DNA from: Loktanella sp. DSM 29012 | GTDB lineage: Bacteria > Pseudomonadota > Alphaproteobacteria > Rhodobacterales > Rhodobacteraceae | Reading direction: 5' to 3' | NCBI RefSeq assembly: GCF_900110705.1 | Contig: NZ_FOEJ01000007.1 | Location: forward strand, 62,001-126,000 | Length of the DNA stretch: 64,000 nt | Position numbers and translations under genes: made by a program | The notes under the pieces: model-generated | Database searches by the model: none | What the model saw: only the letters and a program-made list of their open reading frames with translations | What the model was told of the DNA's origin: nothing | Shown: positions 43,198 to 62,834 of the stretch, in pieces | Numbering within the stretch: position 1 is the stretch's first letter | Layout: each line of letters begins with the position of its first letter

Positions 43198-43223
43198 CGG
43201 CGACATTTGTGGAGGAAACACAC

Positions 43224-44210: not shown

Positions 44211-44222
44211 AGCCCGATCAGT

Positions 44223-44250: not shown

Positions 44251-44327
44251 CGCATCTGACTGACACATCACATAATTCATGCGCAGATCTGCCCCCTGGG
44301 GCCGGGATGCGCCTATGGGGCTGCTGT

Positions 44328-47170: not shown

Positions 47171-48895
47171 TCATTGAGACAATCCCCGAAGGATTTCGTT
47201 TTCGGCATCCCGAATGGCTTGCTTCGGTGATTTGCCACCGAACACCGCGTCGTGGATTTCGCGGCCCAAGGTTCTCTCGATCAGGTTGAAGGCGGGAACT
47301 GGCGGGCGTGACCATGTCACGAGTTCGTTGCGCCGTGCCATCTGGTCGACCATGCGGACGATGGGCGATGATGCCAGTGCTTCTGGATCTGCACAGACCG
47401 AAAAGCGTGGGGCCACGGGGAACCCGTTCTTGACATGCGCCTTCATCGCCTCAGGAGAGACCATCCATGCGATGGCGTTGATGATCTGCCGCTGGCGTGC
47501 TGGGTTCACATTCGCCGGAATCGTCATCAAAAACCCCCCGATCGGGGCCGCCACCTTGCCCATGCGGCGGGAAGGCGGCGACAGGTAGGCCACCCTGCGC
47601 GTTACGCGTGAACTCAGCTCATGTTCGAAGCGCGCCGCACGCATGGTCCAGCAATAGGCCATGCCGGCCTGGCCGGACATGAAACAGGAAATCCGCTTTT
47701 CCCAGTCCATGTTCGCGATGTCGGGGGGCGATACTTCGGCCAGTTGCTTCATGTAGTCGATGACTTCCAATGCATCGCTGGTATCGATCTGGAGCTTCAA
47801 CCGTTCGAAGCGATCGAACCGCCACCTGTCCTGATTGTGCAGCGGCATATCGATGACGGTCTTCTGGCAGGCTGCAAGGAAGAACATGAACGAGTTTGCG
47901 ATCGGCATGCCGCGTTGGCCATTCCACGCGATGCCATAGAGTTCGGACGCGGGGCGATGCAATTCGCGGGCAGCACGAATCGTGTCGTCGAAAGTCTTCG
48001 GGAAGGCGATACCCTTGTCCTCGAACAAGTCGCGTCGTACGGCCAGAATCTCGATCGTGCAATACAGCGGAATGCCGTATTGCGTGCCGTTCCAGTTGCC
48101 CGTTCCCCATACGGACGGATGAAAATCAAGCGCGTTGATCGCGGCGTCGGTCAAAAGCTCATCGAGCGGTGCAAGCAGGCCCTTTTCCGCGAATTCCCCC
48201 AGCCAAGGCATATTGAGTGATACCACGTCGTGCGCTGGCGATGCACTTTGCCCGGTGGCCAGCGCATTGGCATAAAGGTCGGGCAGGCGCTGCAGGTCAA
48301 AGCTGCTTTTGCGCCCCAGATCGTTGCGGAAGTCCGACCACATGTTCCGCATGGATGTGAAGTAATTGTCGTCGTTCAGCAGGAAACGAATGTCGTTCGG
48401 CACGCTGCCGCCGATGTCATGGGTCTGGATGGGCGAAATGATCTGCGACGCGAAGTAGCTGCCGCCGAAGTAGTATTCGTTCGCTTCGGTGCCTTTGCGC
48501 AGACCGAAGGTCTGGGCGAGGTGCGCTTTGACGTGGTTTGCGTAGTCCATGAACGCGCTCAACAACCGTTCGGAGGGTTGCAGGAAATGCGTCTTCAGCC
48601 CGTGACCGCGCGGTACCTGTTGGATCAGCGCGTCGGCGATCATCTTCGTGACCATCCGATTGCCCGTGCTGTAGGGGACGCGAGCCAGCGCGATCAGGCC
48701 AGATTTGTCCACGGGGCGGTCGCGCAGCTGCGCATCGACCAGTTCCAGCACGATATTCCAGAAAACATCCGGTTTCGCATCCGGCATCTGGTCGTCGAAT
48801 GGCATGCGAAGCTGCCGCAAAAAGTCGACGATCCGCGATAATTCGTGGCTGGTGAGTTCGGCCTTTGGGCCGTGTTGTGGAATTTGCTGGTTCAT
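47171..48895 (-). CDS. MarR-like winged helix fused to solute-binding-protein fold (putative sensor-regulator)
   Basis: 574 residues with no signal peptide and no transmembrane helix. Residues about 15-130 look like a MarR-type winged helix: a first long helix, a second region with Ala-Leu-Ala-Arg-Val-Pro-Tyr-Ser-Thr-Gly-Asn-Arg-Met as recognition helix, a wing and a Leu-x-Pro-Ser-Glu-Arg-Leu segment. Residues about 150-565 resemble a family 1 extracellular sugar-binding protein (Leu-Asp-Glu-Leu-Leu, Tyr-Gly-Ile-Pro-Leu-Tyr, Phe-Met-Ser-Gly-Gln-Ala-Gly-Met). It probably binds DNA in response to the pathway substrate. It is the last gene of the leftward arm. Confidence 0.7.
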   Translation of the reverse strand: MNQQIPQHGPKAELTSHELSRIVDFLRQLRMPFDDQMPDAKPDVFWNIVLELVDAQLRDRPVDKSGLIALARVPYSTGNRMVTKMIADALIQQVPRGHGLKTHFLQPSERLLSAFMDYANHVKAHLAQTFGLRKGTEANEYYFGGSYFASQIISPIQTHDIGGSVPNDIRFLLNDDNYFTSMRNMWSDFRNDLGRKSSFDLQRLPDLYANALATGQSASPAHDVVSLNMPWLGEFAEKGLLAPLDELLTDAAINALDFHPSVWGTGNWNGTQYGIPLYCTIEILAVRRDLFEDKGIAFPKTFDDTIRAARELHRPASELYGIAWNGQRGMPIANSFMFFLAACQKTVIDMPLHNQDRWRFDRFERLKLQIDTSDALEVIDYMKQLAEVSPPDIANMDWEKRISCFMSGQAGMAYCWTMRAARFEHELSSRVTRRVAYLSPPSRRMGKVAAPIGGFLMTIPANVNPARQRQIINAIAWMVSPEAMKAHVKNGFPVAPRFSVCADPEALASSPIVRMVDQMARRNELVTWSRPPVPAFNLIERTLGREIHDAVFGGKSPKQAIRDAENEILRGLSQ

Positions 48896-48904
48896 CCCGA
48901 CACC

Positions 48905-49825
48905 TTACAGTTTCGCCTTGCCCCCGCGCCATTTCACCAAAGCGAAGAAATCGTCGTCGTTCAACCCGGCTTTGGCCGCATCACGGTATTGTTCCAGGAT
49001 GAGAGAAGTGACGGCCTGTGGCACGTCATGCGCGTGCGCGGCATCGGTAATCAGAATGAAATCCTTGATCATTTGTTCGACGGAAAACGCCGGTGTGAAG
49101 TCGTCTGCGACGATGGCATCTGCCTTGTAGGCCAGCAATGGTGAGGCGACAGCACTTTCGCCCACGACATCCATCATCGCCCGGCGGTTGAGCCCGCCGC
49201 TTTCGCCAAGCGCGAGTGCCTCTGCCATGATCGCGGATGTCGCACCGACAAGCGTATTCAGGACAAGCTTCATGTAGCGGGCCTCTTCGCCGCCACCCAG
49301 ATAGAAGCGCCGCGCCGAGAGATGTGCGAGGTAGGGCTCGACCGTGTCCCATGCCGCTTTGTCGCCTGACGCAAGAACCGTCAAGGCGGCCTTTTCTGCC
49401 AGCGCCGTACTACCTGACAAGGGTGCGCGGAGATAGTGGATATTCCTTGATTTCAAGGCTGCTGCCACCTCCGACGAACAGTCCGGCGATACCGTGCTCA
49501 TTTCCACGAAAATCGCCCCAGGGCGCAGAACGTCCGCCAGTCCGGGGGAGGTTTCATCGCCGAAAACAACGTGCCGCAGCACCGCATCGTTGGGGAGTGT
49601 CGCAAAAACGATGTCGGATGATCGGTGCCGTGATGCGTCGGCCGCCACAGTCGCCCCAACGCCGGCAAGCTCTGCTACAGCCTGAGCAACAGGGTCCGTA
49701 ACCGCGACGGGAATGTCTTGAGCCAACAGATTACGGATCATCGGGGTACCCATCTTTCCCGCGCCGATCCATCCCACCGCCAAGACCGCGCCTGCCGCTT
49801 TGACGTCGTCAACTTCAATCCCCAC
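48905..49825 (-). CDS. NAD(P)-dependent oxidoreductase, 3-hydroxyisobutyrate dehydrogenase family
   Basis: 306 residues from a GTG behind GGAGGAG. The N-terminal Rossmann fold has Gly-Trp-Ile-Gly-Ala-Gly-Lys-Met-Gly-Thr-Pro-Met. Later blocks are Phe-Val-Glu-Met-Ser-Thr-Val and Ala-Pro-Leu-Ser-Gly-Ser, and Lys-Leu-Val-Leu-Asn-Thr carries the catalytic Lys of beta-hydroxyacid dehydrogenases. It oxidises a beta-hydroxy acid or reduces a semialdehyde; the substrate is unknown. It is the first gene of the leftward arm, 9 bp before the regulator. Confidence 0.82.
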   Translation of the reverse strand: MGIEVDDVKAAGAVLAVGWIGAGKMGTPMIRNLLAQDIPVAVTDPVAQAVAELAGVGATVAADASRHRSSDIVFATLPNDAVLRHVVFGDETSPGLADVLRPGAIFVEMSTVSPDCSSEVAAALKSRNIHYLRAPLSGSTALAEKAALTVLASGDKAAWDTVEPYLAHLSARRFYLGGGEEARYMKLVLNTLVGATSAIMAEALALGESGGLNRRAMMDVVGESAVASPLLAYKADAIVADDFTPAFSVEQMIKDFILITDAAHAHDVPQAVTSLILEQYRDAAKAGLNDDDFFALVKWRGGKAKL

Positions 49826-49890
49826 GATCTGCTCCTCCGGGCATGCTACCGCGACACGTTATGCCAGCGGGGTGGACTGGCGATGTCGGA

Positions 49891-49911
49891 ATTTATCCGT
49901 TTCGGATAAAT
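49891..49911. promoter_or_regulatory. dyad operator 1 in divergent intergenic region
   Basis: Perfect 9-bp inverted repeat ATTTATCCG / CGGATAAAT with a 3-base spacer, in the 184-bp region between the divergent arms of the catabolic cluster. The core CCG-N3-CGG recurs in the second dyad 29 bp away. A dimeric regulator, most simply the adjacent MarR-like fusion, would bind it; this is not shown. Confidence 0.65.
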
Positions 49912-49922
49912 CATTCGGATAT

Positions 49923-49937
49923 TCTCCGAAGCGGAGA
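49923..49937. promoter_or_regulatory. dyad operator 2 in divergent intergenic region
   Basis: Inverted repeat TCTCCG / CGGAGA with a 3-base spacer. It shares the CCG-N3-CGG core with operator 1 and is centred 29 bp from it. A further overlapping TCGGA-N5-TCCGA lies at about 49915-49929. It sits about 75-85 bp before the start of the rightward arm. Confidence 0.6.
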
Positions 49938-50009
49938 GATAGGCTCTTGGAGTGAGGCACGGCTGGGAGCAACGTTGCCTTACCGAAGACACGTAGGAGG
50001 AGAGACCAG

Positions 50010-51077
50010 ATGAAGGCAGTGCGTTTCCACGGAGCAAAGGACATCCGCGTTGAAGATGTGGCAGAGCCGTCAGGCGATCTGGCCGCCGACGATGTGCTGA
50101 TCGCCCCCTTCGTCACAGGCATCTGCGGCACCGACCTGCACGAATACATCGCAGGCCCGATCGTGACCCCGCAAGAGCAACATATTTATACCGGCGCCAC
50201 AAACCCGCAGATTCTGGGCCACGAATTTTCCGCCAGGGTACTGGCCGTCGGGTCCGGTGTGGATCACGTTTCCGCAGGAGACCGCATCTCCGTTCAGCCG
50301 CTGCTGTCGCCACGGGGCGACTATTACGGCAAGCGCGGGCTCTATCACCTCTCGCCGTCAATGGGCTGCGTCGGCCTGTCCTGGGCTTGGGGCGGCATGG
50401 GCGAGAAGGCCGTGATCAAGGATTATAACGCGCAGCCTGTGCCGGACAACATCACGGATGAACAGGCAGCGATGATCGAACCTGCGGCTGTTGCGCTTTA
50501 CGGTGTTGACCGTGGCGGCGTGACGGCAGGATCGACAGTGCTGGTGTCGGGCGCCGGCCCCATCGGCGCACTGACCGTATTGGCGGCCCACGCCGCCGGT
50601 GCTGCGACGATCATCGTGTCCGAAACCAACCCCAATCGTCGCCGCATCATCAAGGAAATTGCTCCCTATGCGTATGTTGTCGACCCGCGCGGTCAGGACC
50701 TCGCAGCTATCGTGGGTGATCTGACCGAAGAAGGCGTCGGCGTTGATGTTGCGCTGGAATGCGTAGGGTTGGAGGTATCGCTGAATGCCTGTGTCCACGC
50801 CGTGCGCCGTCAGGGCCGCGTCGTGCAGGTCGGCCTGCATATGAAACCTGCCAGCATCGACGCGATGCTGTGGGCGCTGAAGGATATCACGGTCGAGGCG
50901 ACCTGGTGCTACCCGACGCAAATCTGGCCCCGGATCGCCCGGATGATCGCTGCAGGGACGTTCCCTGTCGAGAAGGTCATCACCGCCCGCATCAACGCCG
51001 AGGATGTCGTCGCCAAGGGGTTCGAAGCACTGCTCGATCCTGCAGGCGAACACCTGAAAATTCTCGTCACCACCTGA
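50010..51077 (+). CDS. zinc-type alcohol dehydrogenase (butanediol/sorbitol-dehydrogenase-like)
   Basis: 355 residues of the medium-chain dehydrogenase family. Catalytic zinc ligands Cys39, His71 and Glu72 are present, and the NAD fold has Gly-Ala-Gly-Pro-Ile-Gly-Ala. The four structural-zinc cysteines normally found near residues 95-110 are absent. That loop is longer and carries Ser, Arg, Gly and Tyr instead. It probably oxidises a secondary alcohol of the imported polyol. It is the first gene of the rightward arm, with AGGAGGAG ribosome-binding site. Confidence 0.82.
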   Translation: MKAVRFHGAKDIRVEDVAEPSGDLAADDVLIAPFVTGICGTDLHEYIAGPIVTPQEQHIYTGATNPQILGHEFSARVLAVGSGVDHVSAGDRISVQPLLSPRGDYYGKRGLYHLSPSMGCVGLSWAWGGMGEKAVIKDYNAQPVPDNITDEQAAMIEPAAVALYGVDRGGVTAGSTVLVSGAGPIGALTVLAAHAAGAATIIVSETNPNRRRIIKEIAPYAYVVDPRGQDLAAIVGDLTEEGVGVDVALECVGLEVSLNACVHAVRRQGRVVQVGLHMKPASIDAMLWALKDITVEATWCYPTQIWPRIARMIAAGTFPVEKVITARINAEDVVAKGFEALLDPAGEHLKILVTT

Positions 51078-51107
51078 ATTGACTGAAACTGAGAAAGACC
51101 TGATTTC

Positions 51108-52175
51108 ATGACCAAGAACATCGCACTGATCGTCGGCGCGACCGGCTTGTCTGGCAGCTATACCGGACGCCAGTTGAAAGACGCGGGCTGGACGGTCGTG
51201 ACCGTATCGCGCAGCGCCGTGGATCTCGACTTTTCCGATCGACATATCGCCGCCGATCTCGAAGATGCATCCGGTGCGAAAGCCGCGCTGCAAGAAGCGC
51301 AGGATGTGACCCACGTGTTTTATTGCACCTGGTCGCGTCAGGCATCCGAGGATGAAAACGTCCGCGTCAACGCCGCGATGATCCGCAACCTGTTCGACGG
51401 CATTGCCGATGCACCCGTGCAGCACGCGGCACTTGTCACGGGTCTGAAGCATTACCTCGGGTCGTTCGACGACTATGCCAAGGTTACGCCCTACACGCCG
51501 TTTCTGGAAAGCAGCCCGCGCCTGCCGGGACCGAACTTCTATTACGCGCAAGAGGATGTGCTGTTCGAGAAAGCAAAAGAGCAGGGCTTTACCTGGTCCG
51601 TCCACCGTCCGCACACGATGATCGGCTTCGTCGTCGGCAACGCGATGAACATGGCCGTGACGCTGGCCGTTTATGCCAGCATCTGCAAGCACACGGGGCG
51701 ACCCTTTGTCTATCCCGGCTCGCCAGAGCAATATAACGCCGTCACTGATGTGACCGACGCACGCATTCTGGCAAAGCAGCTGCAATGGGCCGCGACCACA
51801 CCGGAGGCCGCTGATACACCATTCAACATCGTCAACGGAGACGTGTTTCGCTGGACATGGCTCTGGCAGCAAATCGCGGATTACTTCGATGTGCCGGTGG
51901 CGGATTACCCGGGCCACACCACACCGCTTGAAGAAACGATGTCGGACGCCGCCGACATCTGGGCCGATATCGTGGCCAAGCACGGCTTGCAGGACATTCC
52001 GGTCGGCAAGCTGGCGTCCTGGTGGCATTCGGATGCCGACCTCAGCCGCACGCTGGAATGTTTTACCGACATGACCAACAGCCGCGTGCTGGGCTTCGAT
52101 GCCTACCAGCCGACGTCTGCCAGCTTCTTCGACGTCTTCGACACGCTGCGCGCGCAGAACATCATTCCCGCCTGA
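51108..52175 (+). CDS. PRISE-type SDR (progesterone 5-beta-reductase/iridoid synthase-like)
   Basis: 355 residues. The cofactor loop is Gly-Ala-Thr-Gly-Leu-Ser-Gly at 10-16. The PRISE catalytic pair is visible as Lys114 in Thr-Gly-Leu-Lys-His-Tyr and the Tyr-Tyr of Asn-Phe-Tyr-Tyr at 143-146. This differs from the ordinary SDR Tyr-x-x-x-Lys. PRISE enzymes reduce enones (1,4-reduction) with NADPH. In this pathway it could reduce or, in reverse, form a conjugated ketone on a six-membered ring. It lies 30 bp after the dehydrogenase. Confidence 0.78.
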   Translation: MTKNIALIVGATGLSGSYTGRQLKDAGWTVVTVSRSAVDLDFSDRHIAADLEDASGAKAALQEAQDVTHVFYCTWSRQASEDENVRVNAAMIRNLFDGIADAPVQHAALVTGLKHYLGSFDDYAKVTPYTPFLESSPRLPGPNFYYAQEDVLFEKAKEQGFTWSVHRPHTMIGFVVGNAMNMAVTLAVYASICKHTGRPFVYPGSPEQYNAVTDVTDARILAKQLQWAATTPEAADTPFNIVNGDVFRWTWLWQQIADYFDVPVADYPGHTTPLEETMSDAADIWADIVAKHGLQDIPVGKLASWWHSDADLSRTLECFTDMTNSRVLGFDAYQPTSASFFDVFDTLRAQNIIPA

Positions 52176-52187
52176 AGGACCAGACCG

Positions 52188-52472
52188 ATGCATTACGTGA
52201 TCCATTGCCTTGACCATGATGGTGCCGTTGAAAAGCGGCTTGCAAATTACGAGGCGCACAAGGCCTATCTGGCCGCCGCTACCGTCAAGACGCTGGTGTC
52301 TGGCCCGCTGCTGGCGGATGATGAAGAAACGATGATCGGCAGTTGTTTTTTGCTTGAGGCGGACTCTCTGGCCGAGGTTGAGGCGTTCAACCAGAACGAT
52401 CCGTTTCATCATGCGGGGCTGTGGAAAACCGTCTCGATCCGGCCTTTCGCCAAGCGCGTGGACAATCGCTGA
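52188..52472 (+). CDS. YciI-family protein
   Basis: 94 residues with the YciI/YCII ferredoxin-like fold: an early His (His-Tyr-Val-Ile-His-Cys-x-Asp), Arg-x-x-His-x-x-Tyr-Leu, Gly-Pro-Leu-Leu and the terminal Asp-Pro-Phe. Some relatives, such as the 5-chlorohydroxyhydroquinone dehydrochlorinase TftG, act in hydroxyquinol pathways. This makes a small dehydratase or elimination role here attractive, though unproven. Its stop overlaps the next start as TGATG. Confidence 0.82.
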   Translation: MHYVIHCLDHDGAVEKRLANYEAHKAYLAAATVKTLVSGPLLADDEETMIGSCFLLEADSLAEVEAFNQNDPFHHAGLWKTVSIRPFAKRVDNR

Positions 52473-53479
52473 TGTCTGGTCCCGTTGGTATTGCGCTGGT
52501 CGGAATGGGCTGGTGGGGGCAAAAGATGCTCAACGTGCTGCAAGCCGCTCCTGAAGAAATCAGGGTAGTCCGCGCCGTTGAACCGAACGAAGCCACGGTA
52601 CGCGAATTGTGCGACAGCAAGGGCATCCCGCTATCCGCCGACTATGCCGATGCGCTGAACGATCCGGCGGTTGAGGCCGTCGTGCTGGCCACGCCGCACA
52701 GTCTGCATACCGACCAGATCGCGCAGGCCGTGGCGGCCGGAAAGCACATCTTTTGCGAAAAACCGCTCGCCCTGACCAAGGTCGAGGCGGAAACATCGGT
52801 AAAGCTTTGCGCCGATGCGGGCCTGGTGCTGGGCATGGGCCATGAGCGCCGGTGGGAGCCGCCAATCGCCGACATGCTGGCGAAGGCGGATGCGGGAGAG
52901 CTGGGTCGCATCCATCAGATCGAATCCAACTTCAGCCACGACAAGTTCCTGTCGCTTGATCGTGACAACTGGCGGCTGAAGGCGGATCAGGCACCGGCGG
53001 GCGGCATGACGGCGACAGGTATTCACCTGCTCGATCTTTCCGTCCGTCTGCTGGGACGTGCCGAAAGCGTGCTTTGCATCTGTGAACAGCTTTCAAGCGA
53101 TCTGCCGCAGGGCGACACTGTAGCGGCCTATGTCAAATTCGCGGGCGGTGGGACCTCCTATGTTTCGGCCTCGCTGGCCAATCCGTTCATGTCCCGCTTT
53201 ACGGTCTATGGATCGAAGGGCTGGATCGACATTCGCGACAAGGCCCATGTCGAAAGCCCCGACGGCTGGATCGTGACGTCCGCCATGGCGGGCGGGCCGA
53301 TCGAGACAGTCGAAATCGGCAAGGCCGAGCCGGTGAAAGATAACCTTGTCGCCTTTGCCCGTGCCGTGCGGGGACAAGAGACCTACCCGATCACCGGCGA
53401 TCATCTTGTTAATAACATTGCCCTGCTGGAAGCGGTTTTTGCATCCGCGACCAGCGGCCAAATCGAACGCGTGGCCTGA
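52472..53479 (+). CDS. Gfo/Idh/MocA-family oxidoreductase
   Basis: 335 residues from the ATG overlapping the YciI-like stop. The N-terminal Rossmann motif is Gly-Met-Gly-Trp-Trp-Gly. The family Glu-Lys-Pro-Leu-Ala-Leu lies near residue 97, and the C-terminal domain has Gly-Ile-His-Leu-Leu-Asp-Leu with the catalytic His. Members oxidise inositols, sugars or glycosides at one hydroxyl with NAD(P). With the ribose-type importer nearby it is a good candidate for first attack on the imported polyol. Confidence 0.87.
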   Translation: MSGPVGIALVGMGWWGQKMLNVLQAAPEEIRVVRAVEPNEATVRELCDSKGIPLSADYADALNDPAVEAVVLATPHSLHTDQIAQAVAAGKHIFCEKPLALTKVEAETSVKLCADAGLVLGMGHERRWEPPIADMLAKADAGELGRIHQIESNFSHDKFLSLDRDNWRLKADQAPAGGMTATGIHLLDLSVRLLGRAESVLCICEQLSSDLPQGDTVAAYVKFAGGGTSYVSASLANPFMSRFTVYGSKGWIDIRDKAHVESPDGWIVTSAMAGGPIETVEIGKAEPVKDNLVAFARAVRGQETYPITGDHLVNNIALLEAVFASATSGQIERVA

Positions 53480-53503
53480 ACGGCCAATACGGGAGGATAC
53501 GAT

Positions 53504-54484: not shown

Positions 54485-54509
54485 AAGAAAAAAGGGGAGG
54501 GAGCAGAAC

Positions 54510-55529: not shown

Positions 55530-56577
55530 TAACACACTGAAAATCGCAGTCTCAGCGCTTGCACTGACAGTTGGTGCAACCGCTGCCATGGCGCAAGACG
55601 TGCCAAGCTGGTGCGGCCCGAACGAGGCGTCGTTGGCGCTGCTCGACGGCTTCGGCGGCAACAGCTGGCGGCTGGTCACGACAGCATCGGGCGCTGAAGA
55701 AGTCGCCAAATGCCCCAGCATCACGCAATTCGAATATGCGGACGGCCAGGGGGATACGCAAAAGGCGATCTCCGACATCAATTCAATGGTCGCACGTGGT
55801 ATCAATGCGTTGGTGGTCTTCGGCGATGCCGGCCCGGCGGTCCTGCCTGCCTTGACCAACGCCTATCGCGCGGGTGCCATCGTGGTGCCCTACCGCGTCA
55901 ACGTGGGCGGCGAAGCCGGCACCAACTATACCAAGTTCATCGGCTCGTCCTTCAAGGATGACGGCGTGAACTGGGGCAACTGGATCAAGGAACAGCTGCC
56001 GGACGGCGGCAACCTGTTGTTCCTGTCGGGCCCCGCAGGCAACAGCCAGGGCGTCGATGAACTGGCCGGTATGAAGGAGGTTCTGGACGACAGCTATGTC
56101 TTCATCAACCCCGAACCCTTTGCCGTCACCAATTGGGACCCGTCGCTGACACAGCAGGTCCTGTCGGCTGAAATCGCAAAGAACGACCAGATCGACATGA
56201 TCGTGTCCGACTTTGGTCCATCACTGGTCGGCGCGCTGCCCGTATTTGCGGAATTCGGCCGGTCCATCCCTGCCATTGCGACGTCTGACGGCAACTCTCT
56301 GTCGTGCTTCTGGGCAGAAAATCAGGAATCCAACCCGGATTTCAAACTGTTCACGGTCGCGACCGGCAACGACAACGTAAGGCTTGCGGTGCAGTGGGCC
56401 GTGGCCGAAGCGACGGGCGGCACACCGCCGACTGATGAAATCTTCAAGGCACCTGTTTTTGAAGACTCCGTCAGCGGCACGCCAAACCCTGTCGACTGCC
56501 GCCCGGAACTGCCTGGTTCGATCTACCTGTCTGCGGAAATGACGGGCGAAGATCAGGCGAAAGCCGTCGGGCAGTAA
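55522..56577 (+). CDS. ABC transporter sugar/polyol-binding protein (type I PBP)
   Basis: 351 residues from an ATG with GGAGGA upstream. A signal peptide ends after Ala-Met-Ala-Gln (about residue 25). The fold is that of the ribose/galactose group: Phe-Glu-Tyr-Ala-Asp-Gly-Gln-Gly-Asp, then Gly-Asp-Ala-Gly-Pro, and Asp-Phe-Gly-Pro-Ser-Leu later. Three or more Cys in the mature chain could form a disulfide. It captures the transported compound in the periplasm. A terminator-like hairpin follows, favouring high expression of this gene. Confidence 0.86.
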   Translation: MLDNTLKIAVSALALTVGATAAMAQDVPSWCGPNEASLALLDGFGGNSWRLVTTASGAEEVAKCPSITQFEYADGQGDTQKAISDINSMVARGINALVVFGDAGPAVLPALTNAYRAGAIVVPYRVNVGGEAGTNYTKFIGSSFKDDGVNWGNWIKEQLPDGGNLLFLSGPAGNSQGVDELAGMKEVLDDSYVFINPEPFAVTNWDPSLTQQVLSAEIAKNDQIDMIVSDFGPSLVGALPVFAEFGRSIPAIATSDGNSLSCFWAENQESNPDFKLFTVATGNDNVRLAVQWAVAEATGGTPPTDEIFKAPVFEDSVSGTPNPVDCRPELPGSIYLSAEMTGEDQAKAVGQ

Positions 56578-56585
56578 GAGATACC

Positions 56586-56617
56586 GGTCCGGGCGCAATC
56601 CGCGCCCGGATCTTTTT
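56586..56617 (+). terminator. terminator-like hairpin after the binding-protein gene
   Basis: Stem TCCGGGCGC / GCGCCCGGA (9 bp, extendable by wobble) with a 5-base loop, then TC and five T, starting about 10 bp after the stop codon. As the operon continues at 56646 it probably acts as a partial terminator that gives more binding protein than ATPase-permease. Confidence 0.7.
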
Positions 56618-56645
56618 CAAAACTGACGCCATCGCAGGACAGTTT

Positions 56646-59171
56646 ATGACAGTGATCGACACAATCACCGCATCTGAAACAGGCCATAATCCTGTTACGG
56701 CCCCGGCGCTGCGACTGACCGGCGTGACCAAGTATTTCGCCAGCGTGGCGGCGCTTGTCGACGTTTCTGTTGATATCTATCCCGGAGAGGTCCACGCGAT
56801 CCTTGGAGAAAACGGCGCTGGCAAGTCGACGTTGATGAATATCATTTCCGGCGTGCTTCAACCGTCCGAGGGTAAGCTGGAAGTCGCGGGCGATCCCGTA
56901 TCACCGATGACTCCGTCCCGTTCGACCGAGCTGGGTATTTCCATTGCCTATCAACATCCGGCCGTCTTGAACGACCTGACTGTGCTCGAAAACCTCCGCG
57001 TTGCCTTGCCAGACGAGGTCTTTGCGGGCGGTGATAGCCTTAAGATTGCGCGCGATATGCTGGATGCCGTGGGGCTGCATGTGCCGTTGAATGCGCGTGC
57101 CGCCGATCTGCCGGTGCCGCAGCGCCATCTACTGGAGATCGCAAAGGCGCTGGCGGTGCAGCCGCGTATCCTGATCATGGACGAACCAACGGCAGCACTG
57201 GACCAAGATGCGACCGACATGCTGTTTGCCCGCATTCGCGCACTGGCGGCGCAAGGCACCGCCGTCATCTACATCACGCACCGCATGGCGGAACTGCGCC
57301 AAATCGCAGACCGTGTCACGGTTCTGCGTGACGGTCGGATGCGCGGTACATCGCTGGCCAACGACGTGACCGATCAGGCGCTGCTTGACATGATCGTCGG
57401 GCGGTCGCTTGTGTCGGCGTTCCCGCCCAAAGCGGTGGGCGCTGCCGCGACAATCAATTTCGCGGTGAGGGGGCTGACAGGAAAGAACTTCAGCGATGTC
57501 AGCTTTGACGTCGGACGTGGCCGGATCATCGGGATAGCGGGTGTCGACGGAAACGGACAGGCCGAACTGATGCGCGCCCTAGCGGGCCTGTTGCCTTATA
57601 CTGGGCAGGTGCTGCTGAACGGTGATGCATTGAAAGCCGACACGCTGTCCCGCACTGCCGCCTATATGCCCGCCGACCGACATGAAGAAGGGCTGGCGGC
57701 GGACCTGACCGTGCGCGAAAACGCGACCTTCACGGCACTTGACCGGTTTGCCAGCGGCGGTGTGATGAACCGAAGCCGCGAACTGGCGGACGTCCGCGAC
57801 ATTTTTGGACAGCTTGCCGTCAAGACGCCGGGGCTGGACGCAAAGGTCCTGTCGCTGTCGGGCGGCAACCAGCAAAAGATCGTCATGTCGCGCGCGCTGC
57901 TGTCGCGTCCTGGCTATATCATTGCCGACCAGCCGACGCAGGGCGTCGATGTTGGTGCAAGGTTCGAGATTTACCGCATCCTGCGCGAAGTGTCCGACGC
58001 AGGCACGCCCGTCATCGTCAATTCGTCTGATGCCGCTGAACTTGAAGGGTTGTGCGACACCGTCGTCGTGATGTCGCGTGGCCGCGTGGCACAGGTGTTG
58101 GAAGGCGACGCGATCACCGAAGAACGGATCGTTGGTGCTGCCGTGCAGGCTGAAACCCATGCACCGAACATGGGGGAACCGACGGTCCAAGTGCAAAAGT
58201 CACGTGGCGGCTGGCGGCATCTGGTGCAAAGCGACAACGCGACAGCGATCCCGCTGGCGGCGGTGATCGTGCTACTTGGACTTTACGTCTTTGGTCAGAA
58301 TGCAAACTATCTGTCGGCCTTCAACATCTCGAACATTTTGCTGCTGGCGACTGCCCTTGGCTTTATTGCGATGGGTCAGACCATTGCCTTGCTGATGGGC
58401 GGCATCGATCTGTCGGTCGGGCCTTTGGCAGGGTTCCTTGTGGTTGTGGGATCATTCTTCATCAATGATGGGCAGGGGGCGTCGACAATCGCGCTGGGCT
58501 TTGTGCTGATGTTTGCCTGCGCGGCTGTCGTCGGCGCGGTGAACGGCAGCCTGATGCGCTATGCCAATTTCACCCCGATCGCCGCGACCTTGGCGATGTA
58601 TATCGGGTTGCAGGGTCTCAGCTTCGTGCTGCGTGATGGCCCCGGTGGCTACATCAATTTCACGGTGATGGACTGGCTGACATGGAAGCTGGGGCCGATC
58701 CCGGTTGCGTTCATCGTACTCATTGTATTCGGCATCACGGCAGAAATACTGTTGCGCCGGTCCCGTGGCGGCTGGCAACTGCGGGCCGTGGGATCGGACG
58801 AAGGCGCCGCGCGGCGGCTTGGCGTGCGGGTCAATCGCGTATTCATTCTTGGCTATGTTGCCGTATCGCTGCTAACGGCCTGCGGCGCGGTCATGCTGAT
58901 GGCCCAGATCGGCGTTGGCGATCCTTCGCAGGGCATCACCTACACCCTGTCGAGCATCACGGCAGTCGTTCTGGGCGGCACCAGCCTGCGCGGCGGGCGT
59001 GGCACGTTTATCGGCACGATCCTCGGTGCGGTTCTGTTGACCGAAGTGCTGAACGCCGTGTCTTTCCTCGGGCTGTCGCAAGCCTATCAATACTTCTTTC
59101 AGGGCGCGCTGATTGTCGTGGCCGCACTGATCTACGCCACCGCACGTAGCCGGGCAGAGGCACCGACATGA
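56646..59171 (+). CDS. fused ribose-type ABC ATPase and permease (RbsA-RbsC fusion)
   Basis: 841 residues. Residues about 15-255 are ATPase 1 (Gly-Glu-Asn-Gly-Ala-Gly-Lys-Ser; signature degenerate, Leu-Pro-Val-Pro-Gln). Residues about 270-500 are ATPase 2 (Walker A degenerate, Gly-Val-Asp-Gly-Asn-Gly-Gln; signature intact, Leu-Ser-Gly-Gly-Asn-Gln). This asymmetry is usual for RbsA. After a linker (about 500-535), residues 540-830 are an RbsC-type permease with Gly-Gly-Ile-Asp-Leu-Ser-Val-Gly. Rbs-type ATPases and permeases are normally separate chains. It overlaps the next gene by 4 bp. Confidence 0.87.
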   Translation: MTVIDTITASETGHNPVTAPALRLTGVTKYFASVAALVDVSVDIYPGEVHAILGENGAGKSTLMNIISGVLQPSEGKLEVAGDPVSPMTPSRSTELGISIAYQHPAVLNDLTVLENLRVALPDEVFAGGDSLKIARDMLDAVGLHVPLNARAADLPVPQRHLLEIAKALAVQPRILIMDEPTAALDQDATDMLFARIRALAAQGTAVIYITHRMAELRQIADRVTVLRDGRMRGTSLANDVTDQALLDMIVGRSLVSAFPPKAVGAAATINFAVRGLTGKNFSDVSFDVGRGRIIGIAGVDGNGQAELMRALAGLLPYTGQVLLNGDALKADTLSRTAAYMPADRHEEGLAADLTVRENATFTALDRFASGGVMNRSRELADVRDIFGQLAVKTPGLDAKVLSLSGGNQQKIVMSRALLSRPGYIIADQPTQGVDVGARFEIYRILREVSDAGTPVIVNSSDAAELEGLCDTVVVMSRGRVAQVLEGDAITEERIVGAAVQAETHAPNMGEPTVQVQKSRGGWRHLVQSDNATAIPLAAVIVLLGLYVFGQNANYLSAFNISNILLLATALGFIAMGQTIALLMGGIDLSVGPLAGFLVVVGSFFINDGQGASTIALGFVLMFACAAVVGAVNGSLMRYANFTPIAATLAMYIGLQGLSFVLRDGPGGYINFTVMDWLTWKLGPIPVAFIVLIVFGITAEILLRRSRGGWQLRAVGSDEGAARRLGVRVNRVFILGYVAVSLLTACGAVMLMAQIGVGDPSQGITYTLSSITAVVLGGTSLRGGRGTFIGTILGAVLLTEVLNAVSFLGLSQAYQYFFQGALIVVAALIYATARSRAEAPT

Positions 59172-60229
59172 TGCGTGAATTCATCTATCAGGCCGCACCA
59201 TCGCGCGTGATTTTCGGTGCCGGCACATTGTCGCAGGTCAGCGCAGAGGTGGCGCGTCTTGGCTGCAAACGCGCCTTCCTGCTGTCGACCGCGTTCCAGG
59301 CGAAAGACCTGACCGCGCTGGCGGAACAGCTTGGGCCACTGGCCGCAGGGCAATTCAATGACGCCGCGATGCACACCCCGGTCGCAGTGACGGAAAAGGC
59401 GCTGGCGGCCTATGATGCCTGCGGTGCCGATTGCATCGTGGCGCTGGGCGGCGGTTCCACCATCGGGCTGGGCAAGGCCATCGCCTGGCGCAACGACGCG
59501 CCGCAGATCGTCGTCGCCACGACCTATGCCGGGTCAGAGGTGACGGATATTCTGGGCCAAACGAAGGATGGCGAAAAATCTACCGTCCGCGATCCGAAGA
59601 TCAGGCCAGAGGTGGTAATCTACGACCCCGCCCTGACAACGGGACTGCCTGTCGCGATGAGTGTGGCAAGCGGCTTGAATGCCATGGCTCATGCTGTCGA
59701 AGGGCTCTATGCACCAGACGGCAATCCTGTCACATCCTTGCTGGCTGTCGAAGGCATCCGCGCCCTGCGCGACGCGCTGCCCGCAATCGTGACTGACCCG
59801 ACCGATATAAACGCCCGCAGTGCCGCACTTTATGGCTCGTGGCTATGCGGTGTGGTTCTGGGATCGGTGGCCATGTCGCTGCACCACAAGCTGTGTCATA
59901 CGCTGGGCGGCACTTGCGATCTGCCGCACGCCGAAACCCACGCGATCCTGCTGCCCCACACGGCTGCCTACAACGCCCCTGCCGCGCGCGATGCGCTTGC
60001 CCCTGCTGCCGCGCTTTTCGGCGGAGACCTGGGCGGGGGTCTTCATGATCTTGCCCGCGCGCTGGGCGCGCCGCTGGCGTTGAAGGACCTCGGTCTTGCC
60101 CGTGATGACATTGCGAAGGTGGCCGGACTGGCAGTGAAGAACCCCTACGCGAATCCGCGCGACGTGACGCGCGATGGCATCGAGGCACTGCTGACGCGGG
60201 CCTACGAAGGCGCCCGTCCTGAGAGCTGA
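59168..60229 (+). CDS. maleylacetate reductase
   Basis: 353 residues of the iron-containing alcohol dehydrogenase superfamily, in the short form typical of maleylacetate reductase. Landmarks are Gly-Gly-Gly-Ser-Thr (NAD loop, near residue 96), Thr-Tyr-Ala-Gly-Ser-Glu, Ala-Met-Ala-His-Ala-Val-Glu and His-His-Lys-Leu-Cys-His-Thr-Leu-Gly-Gly with the metal-site His residues. It reduces maleylacetate to 3-oxoadipate with NAD(P)H. The ring-cleavage enzyme that makes maleylacetate is encoded 17 bp downstream. Confidence 0.9.
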   Translation: MMREFIYQAAPSRVIFGAGTLSQVSAEVARLGCKRAFLLSTAFQAKDLTALAEQLGPLAAGQFNDAAMHTPVAVTEKALAAYDACGADCIVALGGGSTIGLGKAIAWRNDAPQIVVATTYAGSEVTDILGQTKDGEKSTVRDPKIRPEVVIYDPALTTGLPVAMSVASGLNAMAHAVEGLYAPDGNPVTSLLAVEGIRALRDALPAIVTDPTDINARSAALYGSWLCGVVLGSVAMSLHHKLCHTLGGTCDLPHAETHAILLPHTAAYNAPAARDALAPAAALFGGDLGGGLHDLARALGAPLALKDLGLARDDIAKVAGLAVKNPYANPRDVTRDGIEALLTRAYEGARPES

Positions 60230-60246
60230 CCCAAGAAAGGCCACCC

Positions 60247-61107
60247 ATGTCTGACTCTGCAATCGCCTATTTTACCGAAGACGACTCTGTCGCCGCCGTG
60301 ACAGGGCGGGTGGGCAGCGACACCGATCCGCGACTGGCCAAGGTCATGAACGCGCTGGTCTCGCACCTGCACGCCTTCATCAAGGAAGTGGAGCTGACAC
60401 AGGCGGAATGGGCGCAGGCGATAGCGTTCCTGACCAAGACCGGCCAGATGTGCGACGGTAACCGGCAGGAATTCATCCTGCTCTCTGACGTGCTGGGTGT
60501 GTCGATGCTGGTTGACGCGATCAACAACCGTCGCCCTGATGGGGCGACCGAAAACACCGTGCTGGGGCCTTTCCATGTGGACGGCGTGCCCGAAATGCCG
60601 ATGGGGACGAATATCAGCAAGGATGGCGTGGGAGAAAGCTGCCTTTTCGAAGGTCGCGTGACCGACCTGCATGGCGCACCCCTCGCGGGCGCACGGATCG
60701 ACGTCTGGTCCGACAATGCCGACGGGTTCTACGACGTACAGCAACCCGATGTTCAGCCGCAGCCCAACAATCGCGGGATTTTCGTGACCGGCGAGGACGG
60801 GCGCTACTGGTTTGCGGGTATAAAGCCGGTATCTTATCCGATCCCCGATGACGGCCCTGTCGGACAGATGCTGGAGCATCTCGGGCGGCATCCGTACAGG
60901 CCCGCGCATATGCACTTCATCGTGAGCGCGCCAGGACATGAAACAGTCATTACACATACTTTCGTAAGGGGTGACGATTATCTGCGCTCTGACGCCGTCT
61001 TTGGCGTCAAAAAGACCCTGATCGCCGACTACGAAGCGACGCCGGACGCGGCGACGGCCTGGCGTTCGACCTTCGATTTCAAAATGGTGCCGGAGGCCGC
61101 GACATGA
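60247..61107 (+). CDS. intradiol dioxygenase, hydroxyquinol 1,2-dioxygenase type
   Basis: 286 residues. The N-terminal helical dimerisation domain contains the stretch around Leu-Leu-Ser-Asp-Val-Leu-Gly-Val-Ser-Met-Leu-Val-Asp, typical of hydroxyquinol enzymes. The iron ligands are Tyr162, Tyr197, His221 and His223. It opens hydroxyquinol (1,2,4-benzenetriol) between C1 and C2 to maleylacetate. Chlorocatechol or catechol dioxygenases share the fold; adjacency to maleylacetate reductase favours hydroxyquinol. It overlaps the next gene by 4 bp. Confidence 0.88.
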   Translation: MSDSAIAYFTEDDSVAAVTGRVGSDTDPRLAKVMNALVSHLHAFIKEVELTQAEWAQAIAFLTKTGQMCDGNRQEFILLSDVLGVSMLVDAINNRRPDGATENTVLGPFHVDGVPEMPMGTNISKDGVGESCLFEGRVTDLHGAPLAGARIDVWSDNADGFYDVQQPDVQPQPNNRGIFVTGEDGRYWFAGIKPVSYPIPDDGPVGQMLEHLGRHPYRPAHMHFIVSAPGHETVITHTFVRGDDYLRSDAVFGVKKTLIADYEATPDAATAWRSTFDFKMVPEAAT

Positions 61108-62138
61108 AACTCAACCCGCGCATCGCGTTTCTTGGCACCGGGGCGCAGGGGGCATCCATCGCCGCCGATTTCACCCGCGCGGGCCTTGATGTCACATTCA
61201 TCGACCAGTGGCCCGCCCATGTGGAGGCGATGCGCGAAAATGGGCTGACTGTCCACATGCCGACACGCACGATCCACACACCGGTAAAGGCACTGCACCT
61301 GTGCGAGGTCGCAGAGGTGAAGGAACCGTTTGACCTCGTGTTTCTTGTAGTGAAAGCCTACGATACGCGCTGGGCGACAGAGCTGATCAAGCCGGTGCTG
61401 GCATCCGATGGCTTTATCATCGGCCTTCAGAACGGCATGACCCATGAACAGATTGCGTCTATCGTTGGCCGCGATCGGACGATCGGCGCGGTGATCCAAA
61501 TCGCATCAAACATGTGGACCCCCGGCGTGACAACCCGGCAAAACGACCATGATGAAAGCTGGTTCGCTTTGGGCGCGCTGGATCCGGCAAAGCAAGCCGA
61601 GGTCGAGGACGTGGCCACGTTGCTGCGCCATGCTGGCCGGGTCGAGGTGACGGATGATATTCATTCGGCCAAGTGGATGAAACTGGTGGTCAATGCTGCC
61701 GAGCTGATCCCTTCAGCAATTATCGATACCGCCTTGAACGACGCGGCGTGCAAACCCGGTATGCTCGATTTCATGCGTAAGGCAGGCTATGAGGCGATGG
61801 AGGCGGCGCTGGCGGACGGTGCGAGGATCATGCCGATCATCGGCATGCCCCCGGTCATGAGCAATCACCCGGAACGTTTCGTTGACGAAATTTTCGAAGA
61901 GGTTCTGAAAACCTTTTCACGCGAGGATACCCTTACAACCTCACTTCAGGACTGGCGCAAAGGGCGGCGGGCTGAAATCGAGGATGTAAATGGATGGGTC
62001 GTCAATACGCTGGCCGCCCATGACAAAGCTGCACCAATCAACGATCATGTTGTGCGTATGGCACTTCAGATTGAAGCCGGCACGCGCGATTTCACGGACC
62101 GGAACATCGACGCGCTGCTGCAGATCGGCAAATCATAG
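61104..62138 (+). CDS. ketopantoate-reductase-family oxidoreductase
   Basis: 344 residues. The N-terminal Gly-Thr-Gly-Ala-Gln-Gly binds NAD(P), Val-Lys-Ala-Tyr-Asp lies near residue 88, Gln-Asn-Gly with the next helix near 110, and Ala-Lys-Trp-Met-Lys-Leu-Val-Val-Asn (catalytic Lys and Asn) near 190. It is longer than PanE (about 300). In a catabolic operon it more likely reduces or oxidises another hydroxy/oxo acid than ketopantoate. It is the last gene of the rightward arm. Confidence 0.8.
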   Translation: MKLNPRIAFLGTGAQGASIAADFTRAGLDVTFIDQWPAHVEAMRENGLTVHMPTRTIHTPVKALHLCEVAEVKEPFDLVFLVVKAYDTRWATELIKPVLASDGFIIGLQNGMTHEQIASIVGRDRTIGAVIQIASNMWTPGVTTRQNDHDESWFALGALDPAKQAEVEDVATLLRHAGRVEVTDDIHSAKWMKLVVNAAELIPSAIIDTALNDAACKPGMLDFMRKAGYEAMEAALADGARIMPIIGMPPVMSNHPERFVDEIFEEVLKTFSREDTLTTSLQDWRKGRRAEIEDVNGWVVNTLAAHDKAAPINDHVVRMALQIEAGTRDFTDRNIDALLQIGKS

Positions 62139-62725: not shown

Positions 62726-62834
62726 CAAGATTTCAATCGGTGCTAAGTCCCTTTAACCCTTATATTATTGACCATAACTGCCCTTAACTGCTACACAGCA
62801 GTGCACCACGAGGGTGGTCTTAAGAGTATTTTTT

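What the first reader, a model, noticed from the sequence alone, without database searches (positions are those of the whole stretch)
47171..62138. Dehydrogenase-rich cluster that may convert an imported polyol to hydroxyquinol before ring cleavage
Seen: hydroxyquinol 1,2-dioxygenase-type and maleylacetate-reductase genes share an operon with a ribose-type ABC importer, two zinc-type alcohol dehydrogenases, a Gfo/Idh/MocA oxidoreductase, a PRISE-type enone reductase and a YciI-like protein. A ketopantoate-reductase-like enzyme closes the operon, and a 3-hydroxyisobutyrate-dehydrogenase-like enzyme is on the other arm. Known: these two end enzymes take hydroxyquinol to 3-oxoadipate. No aromatic hydroxylase or decarboxylase, the usual sources of hydroxyquinol, is present. 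Inferred: the aromatic ring could be made from a non-aromatic ring compound. Inositol minus three waters has the formula of benzenetriol, and deoxyinositol (quercitol) needs one oxidation and two dehydrations. A glycoside of an aromatic compound is a competing explanation.
Basis: partly seen in the sequence, partly recalled or inferred. Interest (0 to 1): 0.82.

Follow-up and report, generated by a model that had tools for sequence, protein, structure and literature searches.

The report
Oxygenase-free route to hydroxyquinol, probably from cyclitols
A conserved bacterial gene cluster imports a sugar-like compound and seems to turn it into the aromatic ring hydroxyquinol using dehydrogenases and a dehydratase-like protein instead of an oxygenase, before breaking the ring open for food; the exact starting compound is still unknown.

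Summary
Window 47171-62138 holds a divergent cluster: a regulator-like protein and a HIBADH-like dehydrogenase on one arm; Zn-ADH, PRISE, YciI, Gfo/Idh/MocA, Zn-ADH, ribose-type ABC importer, maleylacetate reductase, hydroxyquinol 1,2-dioxygenase and PanE-like genes on the other. In 22 other clusters, picked for their front-end genes, front-end enzymes are better conserved (median 82-90%) than ring-cleavage enzymes (about 73%). No relative of the usual aromatic hydroxylases was found in 33 clusters, the window's included. Of 80 dioxygenase loci, 19 have YciI, 39 a hydroxylase, none both, but independent origins are too few for a tree-corrected test. YciI's best solved relative is TftG, which makes hydroxybenzoquinone just before hydroxyquinol. 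A sister variant has a rhizopine-type binding protein and a QuiC-like protein. The idea of making the ring from a non-aromatic polyol is strengthened. Against it: Gfo is no canonical inositol dehydrogenase, the genome has the ordinary inositol pathway and an unassigned FAD monooxygenase elsewhere, and no substrate was shown. Myo-inositol is unlikely; another cyclitol is my best guess.

The parts
47171..48895 (-). REG: N-terminal region with helix-turn-helix look plus SBP_bac_1 domain, no signal peptide; putative ligand-sensing transcription regulator of the cluster
   Evidence: Pfam SBP_bac_1 77 bits over residues 210-420 only; in 22 of 22 other clusters, 61-89% identical; HTH assignment is my reading of the sequence, no profile hit
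48905..49825 (-). HIB: 3-hydroxyisobutyrate-dehydrogenase/L-threonate-dehydrogenase-like
   Evidence: NAD_binding_2 and NAD_binding_11; called in 21 of 22 other clusters, in the 22nd (L129) found by tblastn at 61%
49894..49908 (.). putative operator palindrome TATCCGTTTCGGATA
   Evidence: identical 15-mer in rhizobial clusters L098 and L099
49923..49937 (.). second putative operator TCTCCGAAGCGGAGA
50010..51077 (+). ADH1: zinc-type medium-chain dehydrogenase (Tdh/IolM/2,3-butanediol-dehydrogenase-like)
   Evidence: Cys39, His71, Glu72 and Glu157 invariant in 48 rows, gaps ignored
51108..52175 (+). PRISE: progesterone-5-beta-reductase/iridoid-synthase-like enone reductase
   Evidence: PF22917 76.6 bits, cut-off 27; 244 bits to 5mlm; Lys114 and Tyr145/146 invariant in 32 rows
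52188..52472 (+). YciI: TftG-like small protein, candidate dehydratase/eliminase
   Evidence: YCII 61.5 bits, cut-off 24; best PDB hit TftG 53 bits; His24, Asp71 and Arg17 invariant in 24 sequences
52472..53479 (+). Gfo/Idh/MocA oxidoreductase (ORF opens at 52421; start at 52472 likelier, overlapping the YciI stop, as annotated in Loktanella)
   Evidence: PF01408 89.5 bits; EKP lysine and His kept, triad Asp position is Ala
53504..54484 (+). ADH2: zinc-type medium-chain dehydrogenase, nearest curated model IolM (scyllo-inosose 3-dehydrogenase), far under cut-off
   Evidence: 165.6 bits, cut-off 450
54510..55529 (+). importer permease (BPD_transp_2)
55522..56577 (+). importer periplasmic binding protein (Peripla_BP_4) with signal peptide-like N-terminus
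   Evidence: start; nearest structures by profile YtfQ 48.5 bits, 4irx 37.3 bits (that 4irx is an inositol-binding protein is recalled)
56646..59171 (+). importer: two ATPase domains fused to a second permease
   Evidence: ABC_tran two stretches plus BPD_transp_2
59168..60229 (+). maleylacetate reductase
   Evidence: 459 bits to 3w5s
60247..61107 (+). hydroxyquinol 1,2-dioxygenase
   Evidence: 431 bits to 8r2x; Tyr162, Tyr197, His221, His223 invariant in 92 rows, gaps ignored
61104..62138 (+). PanE/ApbA ketopantoate-reductase-like enzyme
   Evidence: ApbA 97.7 bits; in 20 of 22 other clusters, not found by tblastn in the other two

Best explanation
The cluster is a catabolic unit for a polar, non-aromatic polyhydroxylated six-ring compound, most likely a cyclitol other than myo-inositol (a deoxyinositol such as quercitol, an O-methyl-inositol or a cyclohexanetetrol). 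The ribose-type ABC importer brings it in. The dehydrogenases (ADH1, ADH2, perhaps Gfo) oxidise ring hydroxyls to ketones; the ketones acidify neighbouring C-H bonds so that water (or methanol) can be eliminated. The YciI protein, like TftG, uses a His-Asp pair as acid/base for such an elimination and yields hydroxybenzoquinone or hydroxyquinol. PRISE supplies the enone/quinone reduction that some routes need. Hydroxyquinol 1,2-dioxygenase and maleylacetate reductase then give 3-oxoadipate, which CoA transferase and thiolase split. REG senses a sugar-like ligand through its SBP domain and binds the TNTCCGNNNCGGANA palindrome. Shown by sequence comparison: gene content, synteny, lower pathway, importer class, no hydroxylase in the cluster. 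Inferred: substrate, order of steps, YciI as eliminase, PRISE as reductase, REG as regulator.
For: In 22 other clusters the front end is more conserved (ADH1 median 90%, ADH2 87, Gfo 86, YciI 84, PRISE 82) than the dioxygenase and maleylacetate reductase (about 73 each). On the dioxygenase tree the front end sits with several separate lineages (6 changes, at least 4 forced by starred branches, quick tree), so the ring-cleavage half was exchanged while the front end stayed: the front end should end at hydroxyquinol. Among 80 loci YciI and hydroxylase were never found together (19, 39, 0, 22). YciI's best PDB match is TftG, which per PMC3975901 (passages) makes hydroxybenzoquinone that is reduced to benzenetriol, i.e. 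hydroxyquinol; the His and Asp are invariant in 24 sequences. The 11 YciI neighbourhoods opened (of 43 plasmid records) all hold an intradiol dioxygenase and 10 of 11 a maleylacetate reductase. Sister variant L100 has a binding protein nearest the rhizopine family (260 bits, cut-off 420) and a TIM-barrel-type protein nearest QuiC, 3-dehydroshikimate dehydratase (44 bits, cut-off 1200). PcaI/J/F genes adjoin several clusters. Chemistry: myo-inositol and inosose have been aromatised chemically to 1,2,4-trihydroxybenzene derivatives and tetrahydroxybenzene (PMC11467972, passages).
Against: No substrate evidence. Gfo scores 113 bits against an IolG cut-off of 355 and has Ala where inositol dehydrogenases have the catalytic Asp. 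ADH1 and ADH2 are under every NCBIfam cut-off listed. The binding protein is only weakly similar to any solved one, galactofuranose-binding YtfQ first. No IolE-type dehydratase is in the window's variant; the elimination is assigned to a 94-residue protein by analogy. PRISE is missing in L097 and in six of the seven distal variants, so its step is not essential. HIB and PanE have no clear role. Distal variants L104 and L106 carry amidohydrolase-family genes and L106 a GMC oxidoreductase, so not all YciI clusters need share a substrate class. The window's genome has, on contig C15, a 384-aa FAD monooxygenase nearest to 3-hydroxybenzoate 6- and salicylate 1-hydroxylases but far under their cut-offs (196 of 459, 101 of 446 bits); a supply of hydroxyquinol from there is not excluded. 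The YciI/hydroxylase exclusion is not significant once relatedness is allowed for (2 to 6 independent pairs). L003, which has the importer, reductase, dioxygenase and PanE at a contig end, lies in a MAG with no ADH1 match at E <= 1e-100. No pcaF over cut-off in the window's genome among the two best thiolases scanned; best is BktB-like.
Confidence: 0.48

Rival explanations
1. The substrate is a glycoside or other polar conjugate of an already aromatic hydroxyquinol-type compound: imported as a sugar, the sugar part oxidised by Gfo and ADH and eliminated, the freed hydroxyquinol cleaved.
For: Sugar-type importer; Gfo proteins include glycoside 3-dehydrogenases (BT_2158/BT_2159 families hit weakly; DgpA hit); sister variants carry a sugar-isomerase-like protein of the fold used by C-glycoside lyases (recalled).
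Against: No glycosidase, 3-keto-glycoside lyase or sugar-processing gene in the window's operon; other clusters were checked only for the listed genes. PRISE, ADH1, ADH2 and YciI are left without a job.
Confidence: 0.17
2. The cluster degrades a chlorinated or other substituted aromatic: YciI acts as TftG does on a chlorohydroxyquinol, and the hydroxylase is elsewhere in the genome.
For: Best PDB matches are a 6-chlorohydroxyquinol dioxygenase and TftG; the genome has an unassigned 384-aa FAD monooxygenase on contig C15; PMC10673129 (passage) read maleylacetate reductase and hydroxyquinol dioxygenase genes of lake Roseobacteraceae, with a tfdB monooxygenase, as chlorobenzene degradation.
Against: No hydroxylase relative in 33 clusters; 14 of 22 host genomes lack a 585-aa-type hydroxylase at E <= 1e-60; of the window genome's 14 FAD_binding_3 matches the three over 100 bits are a 4-hydroxybenzoate hydroxylase and two UbiH-type proteins; importer is sugar-type.
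Confidence: 0.12
3. A hydroaromatic acid of the quinate/shikimate kind is converted to hydroxyquinol with loss of CO2.
For: Quinate/shikimate genes (shikimate dehydrogenase, QuiC, type II dehydroquinate dehydratase, TRAP) lie next to the Loktanella cluster; type II dehydroquinate dehydratase is also near two distal YciI clusters.
Against: That neighbour looks like a separate route to protocatechuate; I did not search the other clusters for it; CUT2 importers usually carry neutral sugars (recalled); no decarboxylase in the window's cluster.
Confidence: 0.08
4. The imported compound is broken down to something else, and the dioxygenase cleaves a different polyphenol such as a tetrahydroxybenzene, or merely mops up a quinone by-product.
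For: Close hydroxyquinol dioxygenases accept substituted substrates (recalled); inosose dehydration chemically gives tetrahydroxybenzenes.
Against: Maleylacetate reductase and in several clusters pcaIJF follow, as for hydroxyquinol itself.
Confidence: 0.15

Closest known systems
Resorcinol/hydroxyquinol catabolic clusters (hydroxylase, hydroxyquinol 1,2-dioxygenase, maleylacetate reductase)
   Same: Lower pathway enzymes are true homologues; dioxygenases of the 39 hydroxylase loci are 68-74% identical to the window's
   Different: The representative L010 has FAD_binding_3 hydroxylases and a Peripla_BP_6 binding protein, the rest of its branched-chain-type importer being inferred from gene sizes; here dehydrogenases, PRISE, YciI and a ribose-type importer stand in their place
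2,4,5-T pathway TftG / hydroxybenzoquinone reductase / benzenetriol dioxygenase
   Same: YciI homologue next to a hydroxyquinol-type dioxygenase and maleylacetate reductase
   Different: No chlorophenol monooxygenase; sugar importer; several dehydrogenases
Quinate/shikimate pathway (dehydrogenase, dehydratase, aromatising 3-dehydroshikimate dehydratase QuiC)
   Same: Works like it if right: oxidise a hydroaromatic ring and dehydrate it to an aromatic polyol without O2
   Different: No carboxylate, different enzymes, product hydroxyquinol instead of protocatechuate
Inositol (iol) and rhizopine (moc) catabolism
   Same: Gfo/Idh/MocA dehydrogenase, IolM-like dehydrogenases, CUT2 importer; sister variant has a rhizopine-type binding protein
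   Different: No IolE/IolD/IolB/IolC in the cluster; ring would be aromatised and cleaved by a dioxygenase instead of hydrolysed

Membership tests
Hydroxyquinol 1,2-dioxygenase | Closer to hydroxyquinol than to catechol or chlorocatechol dioxygenases | tested here: met
   431/264/261 bits to 8r2x, 1tmx, 3n9t against 134 or less for catechol 1,2-dioxygenases; chlorocatechol and catechol NCBIfam models under cut-off
Hydroxyquinol 1,2-dioxygenase | Two Tyr and two His iron ligands | tested here: met
   Tyr162, Tyr197, His221, His223 invariant in 92 rows, gaps ignored; ligand identity recalled
Maleylacetate reductase | Homology to characterised enzymes over full length | tested here: met
   459 and 451 bits to 3w5s and 3hl0
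Classical hydroxyquinol (resorcinol) cluster | Aromatic hydroxylase in the cluster | tested here: not met
   0 of 33 clusters hold a relative of the three hydroxylase queries; none in the window's cluster by Pfam
IolG inositol 2-dehydrogenase | Score over curated cut-off | tested here: not met
   113 bits, cut-off 355
IolG inositol 2-dehydrogenase | K-D-H catalytic triad (PMC5969746, passages) | tested here: not met
   Lys of EKP and His kept; four places before that His, where the paper's D191/H195 spacing puts the Asp, is Ala in 26 of 28 sequences (by spacing, not by structure). In L098 and L099 my pattern hit another place, so they were not read
IolM scyllo-inosose 3-dehydrogenase | Score over curated cut-off | tested here: not met
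   ADH2 166 and ADH1 136 bits, cut-off 450
YCII / TftG | YCII domain and conserved His-Asp pair | tested here: met
   61.5 bits, cut-off 24; His24 and Asp71 invariant in 24; that these are TftG's dyad is recalled
YCII / TftG | Elimination activity giving hydroxybenzoquinone | not testable with these tools
   needs enzyme assay
PRISE enone reductase | PRISE domain with catalytic Lys and Tyr | tested here: met
   76.6 bits, cut-off 27; Lys114, Tyr145, Tyr146 invariant in 32 rows; catalytic role recalled
CUT2 (ribose-type) ABC importer | Tandem ATPase, BPD_transp_2 permease, Peripla_BP_4 binding protein | tested here: met
Classical myo-inositol pathway | IolE, IolD, IolB, IolC | tested here: not met
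   no such gene among the cluster's family matches; all four present over cut-off elsewhere in the genome

The most novel reading that the evidence does not exclude
Bacteria aromatise free cyclitols (deoxy-, O-methyl- or other inositol relatives) to hydroxyquinol without any oxygenase, by dehydrogenation and elimination with a YciI-family eliminase, and feed it into the 3-oxoadipate pathway: a cyclitol-to-arene catabolic route spread over Rhodobacterales, rhizobia, Burkholderiales and an acidobacterial MAG, with interchangeable stereospecific front ends.
Probability: 0.4. Interest if true: 0.82.

Novelty: new variant of a known kind. Interest (0 to 1): 0.63.

Why it matters
If right, it adds a second biological way, beside quinate/shikimate, by which a saturated polyhydroxylated ring becomes aromatic in catabolism, gives a role to YciI proteins (a common family with few known functions, recalled), and names a fate for plant and algal cyclitols such as quercitol, for which I saw no bacterial pathway in the listings of my paper searches. 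It also warns that hydroxyquinol dioxygenase genes in genomes need not mean pollutant degradation.

Tried and rejected
Rejected: that the gene at 47171 is an importer subunit (no signal peptide-like start, conserved divergent position, shared palindrome). Rejected: myo-inositol as sole substrate (IolB, C/J, D, E elsewhere in the genome). Rejected: that the missing hydroxylase is a flank artefact (upstream flanks refetched and read; still none of the three query kinds).

Led nowhere: the binding protein's ligand could not be inferred from sequence; a neighbour family of about 110 aa has no Pfam hit; the four genes beside the L094 cluster are a separate sugar operon and the two beside L136's dioxygenase a two-component system. 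PRISE homologues in L088-L091 gave no context. Papers: in the listings of searches I saw no title or abstract start on cyclitol-to-hydroxyquinol conversion; others found nothing, 27, 55 and 77 list only the best of more papers (20 of 23, 15 of 397, 12 of 160), and the library is open-licence PMC text only.

Limits: gene calls in fetched loci come from my own codon-usage caller, which missed HIB in L129, YciI in L102 and the dioxygenases of L013 and L074 (found by tblastn). Labels are best BLAST hits with a relative score over 0.12. Hydroxylases were searched as relatives of three query proteins, so an unrelated one in a flank would be missed. The 22 and the 33 clusters were chosen because they carry front-end genes or YciI, so the presence of those genes there is partly by selection. 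Of the 22 loci with neither YciI nor hydroxylase, L002, L003 and L011 are cut by contig ends and L042 has its YciI beyond the flank (L134). The dioxygenase tree holds 78 of the 80 loci; L003 and L011 were labelled front-end type from the genes they keep.

Full report
What is there. The window is G000:C16:62001-126000 of a 3.4-Mb genome whose nearest dioxygenase relatives in named genomes are Puniceibacterium antarcticum (89%) and a Loktanella MAG (80%). Between 47171 and 62138 lie two divergent arms. Minus strand: REG (47171-48895) and a HIBADH-like dehydrogenase. Plus strand: ADH1, PRISE, YciI, Gfo, ADH2, importer permease, binding protein, fused ATPase-permease, maleylacetate reductase, hydroxyquinol dioxygenase, PanE-like. 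Gaps on the plus strand run from -8 to 68 bases.

Lower pathway. The dioxygenase is of the hydroxyquinol type: 431 bits to 8r2x, 264 to 1tmx, 261 to 3n9t, against 134 or less for catechol enzymes; Tyr162, Tyr197, His221 and His223 are invariant in 92 rows (iron-ligand role recalled). The reductase matches solved maleylacetate reductases at 459 and 451 bits. In several relatives CoA-transferase subunits and a thiolase follow or flank the cluster (pcaI in 6, pcaJ in 7, pcaF in 7 of 33 clusters, counting one weak 29% pcaI match in L032+L130). The window's genome has one relative of the pcaJ query, at 50%. Of its four thiolase matches I scanned the best two; the better is BktB-like and both are under the pcaF cut-off, so the last step there is a gap.

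Comparative anatomy. A scan of one genome per species with the dioxygenase gave 174 relatives, of which the best 80 were kept. Neighbourhoods fall into two main kinds, plus a rest. In one, hydroxylases accompany the dioxygenase; the representative L010 has FAD_binding_3 hydroxylases and a Peripla_BP_6 binding protein, the rest of its importer being inferred from gene sizes. In the other, the window's set does. With flanks refetched and the annotated plasmid of Loktanella salsilacus, 22 other clusters of the window's kind were complete enough to count. They were chosen for their front-end genes, so presence is partly by selection. REG, ADH1, PRISE, YciI, Gfo, ADH2, the three importer genes and the dioxygenase are in 22 of 22; HIB in 21 by gene call and in the last by tblastn; PanE in 20; maleylacetate reductase in 17, one of them on the other flank (L007+L122). 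L003 and L011 are cut by contig ends and were left out of that count. In L042+L134 and L094+L136 the genes form two units, and L002+L135 pools two contigs of one genome. One of the 22 is a MAG labelled Terriglobia (L042). In rhizobial plasmids (L097, L098, L099) the same genes occur in another order, L097 without PRISE.

The front end is the conserved half. Median identities to the window: ADH1 90, ADH2 87, Gfo 86, YciI 84, PRISE 82, against dioxygenase 73.5 and reductase 72.7. On the dioxygenase tree (92 rows, quick method) the front-end label needs 6 changes and starred branches force at least 4: L136, L042, L098 and the pair L097/L099 sit apart from a 24-row clade (support 88, not starred) that holds the other 23. 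L003 and L011 were labelled from the genes they keep. So the same front end has been paired with different hydroxyquinol dioxygenases, which is what one expects if its product is hydroxyquinol.

No hydroxylase. Among the 80 loci, 19 have YciI without a hydroxylase, 39 a hydroxylase without YciI, 22 neither, none both; four of the 22 are front-end clusters cut or reaching beyond the flank (L002, L003, L011, L042). Fisher's exact test gives 3e-7, but the loci are related; with independent pairs only 2 (or 6 with added loci) can be formed and no significance can be reached, although none goes the other way. Of 22 host genomes searched (19 of the 22 counted clusters, plus L003, L020 and L041), 14 have no relative of the 585-aa hydroxylase at E <= 1e-60 and 8 have one, on a contig other than that of ADH1 in all eight. 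In the window's genome there are 14 FAD_binding_3 matches. The three over 100 bits are a 4-hydroxybenzoate hydroxylase (642 bits, cut-off 539) and two UbiH/UbiF-type proteins. A fourth, a 384-aa frame on contig C15, is nearest to 3-hydroxybenzoate 6-monooxygenase (196 bits, cut-off 459) and salicylate 1-monooxygenase (101, cut-off 446) but far under both; its substrate is open, and it stands against a firm claim that the whole cell lacks a possible hydroxylase.

What YciI may do. Its best solved relative is TftG (53 bits). A review says that TftG turns 5-chloro-hydroxyhydroquinone into hydroxybenzoquinone, which is reduced to benzenetriol, that is hydroxyquinol (PMC3975901, passages). His24, Asp71 and Arg17 are invariant among 24 cluster YciI proteins. 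All 11 plasmid neighbourhoods that I opened (of 43 YciI records) hold an intradiol dioxygenase, 10 of 11 a maleylacetate reductase. I infer that YciI performs an elimination that ends in hydroxybenzoquinone or hydroxyquinol, and that PRISE, where present, reduces an enone or quinone.

What the substrate may be. The importer is CUT2-like (Pfam), a class for neutral sugars and polyols (recalled). REG carries an SBP_bac_1 domain. A sister variant (L100, Rhizobium) pairs YciI, reductase and dioxygenase with a binding protein nearest to the rhizopine family (260 bits, cut-off 420), a Gfo protein, two SDRs and a protein nearest to QuiC, the 3-dehydroshikimate dehydratase (44 bits, cut-off 1200); L102 and L103 have the same protein at 67 and 45%. 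PMC6668481 (passages) describes moc rhizopine catabolism genes and mocB as a putative binding protein. Arithmetic: inositol minus 3 H2O, quercitol minus 2 H and 2 H2O, and cyclohexanetetrol minus 4 H and 1 H2O all equal C6H6O3. Chemical aromatisation of inositol to 1,2,4-trihydroxybenzene derivatives, and of inosose to a tetrahydroxybenzene, is on record (PMC11467972, passages). The window's genome has the ordinary inositol pathway (IolC/J 687, IolD 905, IolE 376, IolB 345 bits, all over cut-off), so I favour another cyclitol; three or more dehydrogenases suggest a less oxygenated ring or several stereoisomers (inference).

Results against. Gfo is far under the IolG cut-off and has Ala for the Asp of the K-D-H triad that PMC5969746 (passages) gives for inositol dehydrogenases, in 26 of 28 sequences. 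Neither ADH passes an NCBIfam cut-off. The binding protein is nearest to galactofuranose-binding YtfQ at 48 bits, with 4irx, recalled as inositol-binding, at 37. HIB and PanE are unexplained. PRISE is absent from 7 of 33 clusters. Distal variants L104 and L106 carry amidohydrolase-family genes that might be decarboxylases. The genome of L003 has no ADH1 match at E <= 1e-100.

Regulation. The palindrome TNTCCGNNNCGGANA occurs twice before ADH1 (49894, 49923), exactly in 14 of 26 homologous intergenic regions and with at most one mismatch in 22 of 26, against 0.03 and 0.64 in shuffles. The motif was chosen from these sequences, so the contrast is somewhat inflated, but the identical 15-mer in rhizobial clusters L098 and L099 is striking. 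I take it as REG's operator (inference; SgrR is a recalled precedent for an HTH-SBP regulator).

Verdict. A real, conserved and unusual hydroxyquinol cluster whose front end holds no oxygenase. A published genome paper on lake Roseobacteraceae read such reductase and dioxygenase genes as chlorobenzene degradation (PMC10673129, passage); whether those are this cluster was not checked.

Noticed in passing
window 47171-48895 and homologues in 22 other clusters: Regulator-like protein made of an N-terminal DNA-binding-like part and an ABC solute-binding domain without signal peptide, with a shared palindrome between it and its likely targets; a possible family of cytoplasmic binding-protein sensors.
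   Followed up: partly
window 62814-64000: Reading frame with DUF6538 (recalled as an integrase N-terminal part) ending at 63731, with a second, recombinase-like frame starting inside it; looks like a broken integrase just beyond the cluster and near the contig end (126192). The Loktanella cluster also has an integrase nearby.
   Followed up: no
33 loci, e.g. L006:11934-12263: A family of about 110 aa, whose one scanned member has no Pfam match, sits near hydroxyquinol dioxygenase in both hydroxylase and dehydrogenase clusters.
   Followed up: no
L104 (pTiCFBP4996, Agrobacterium leguminum) and L100 (Rhizobium plasmid): YciI-type hydroxyquinol clusters lie on rhizobial accessory plasmids and on a Ti plasmid.
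   Followed up: no
window 43173-46562: TAXI-type TRAP transporter pair directly beside the cluster, on the strand opposite to REG.
   Followed up: no
L004, L006, L007, L012, L016, L018: These clusters lack maleylacetate reductase between importer and dioxygenase; L007 has one on its other flank with pcaFJI, and in five of the six genomes a 585-aa-type hydroxylase exists on another contig.
   Followed up: partly
L096:28662-34779: Shikimate dehydrogenase, QuiC-like, TRAP and type II dehydroquinate dehydratase genes lie next to the Loktanella cluster.
   Followed up: partly
G000:C15, L110:1357-2508 (-): Unassigned FAD monooxygenase of the 3-hydroxybenzoate/salicylate hydroxylase superfamily in the window's genome.
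   Followed up: partly
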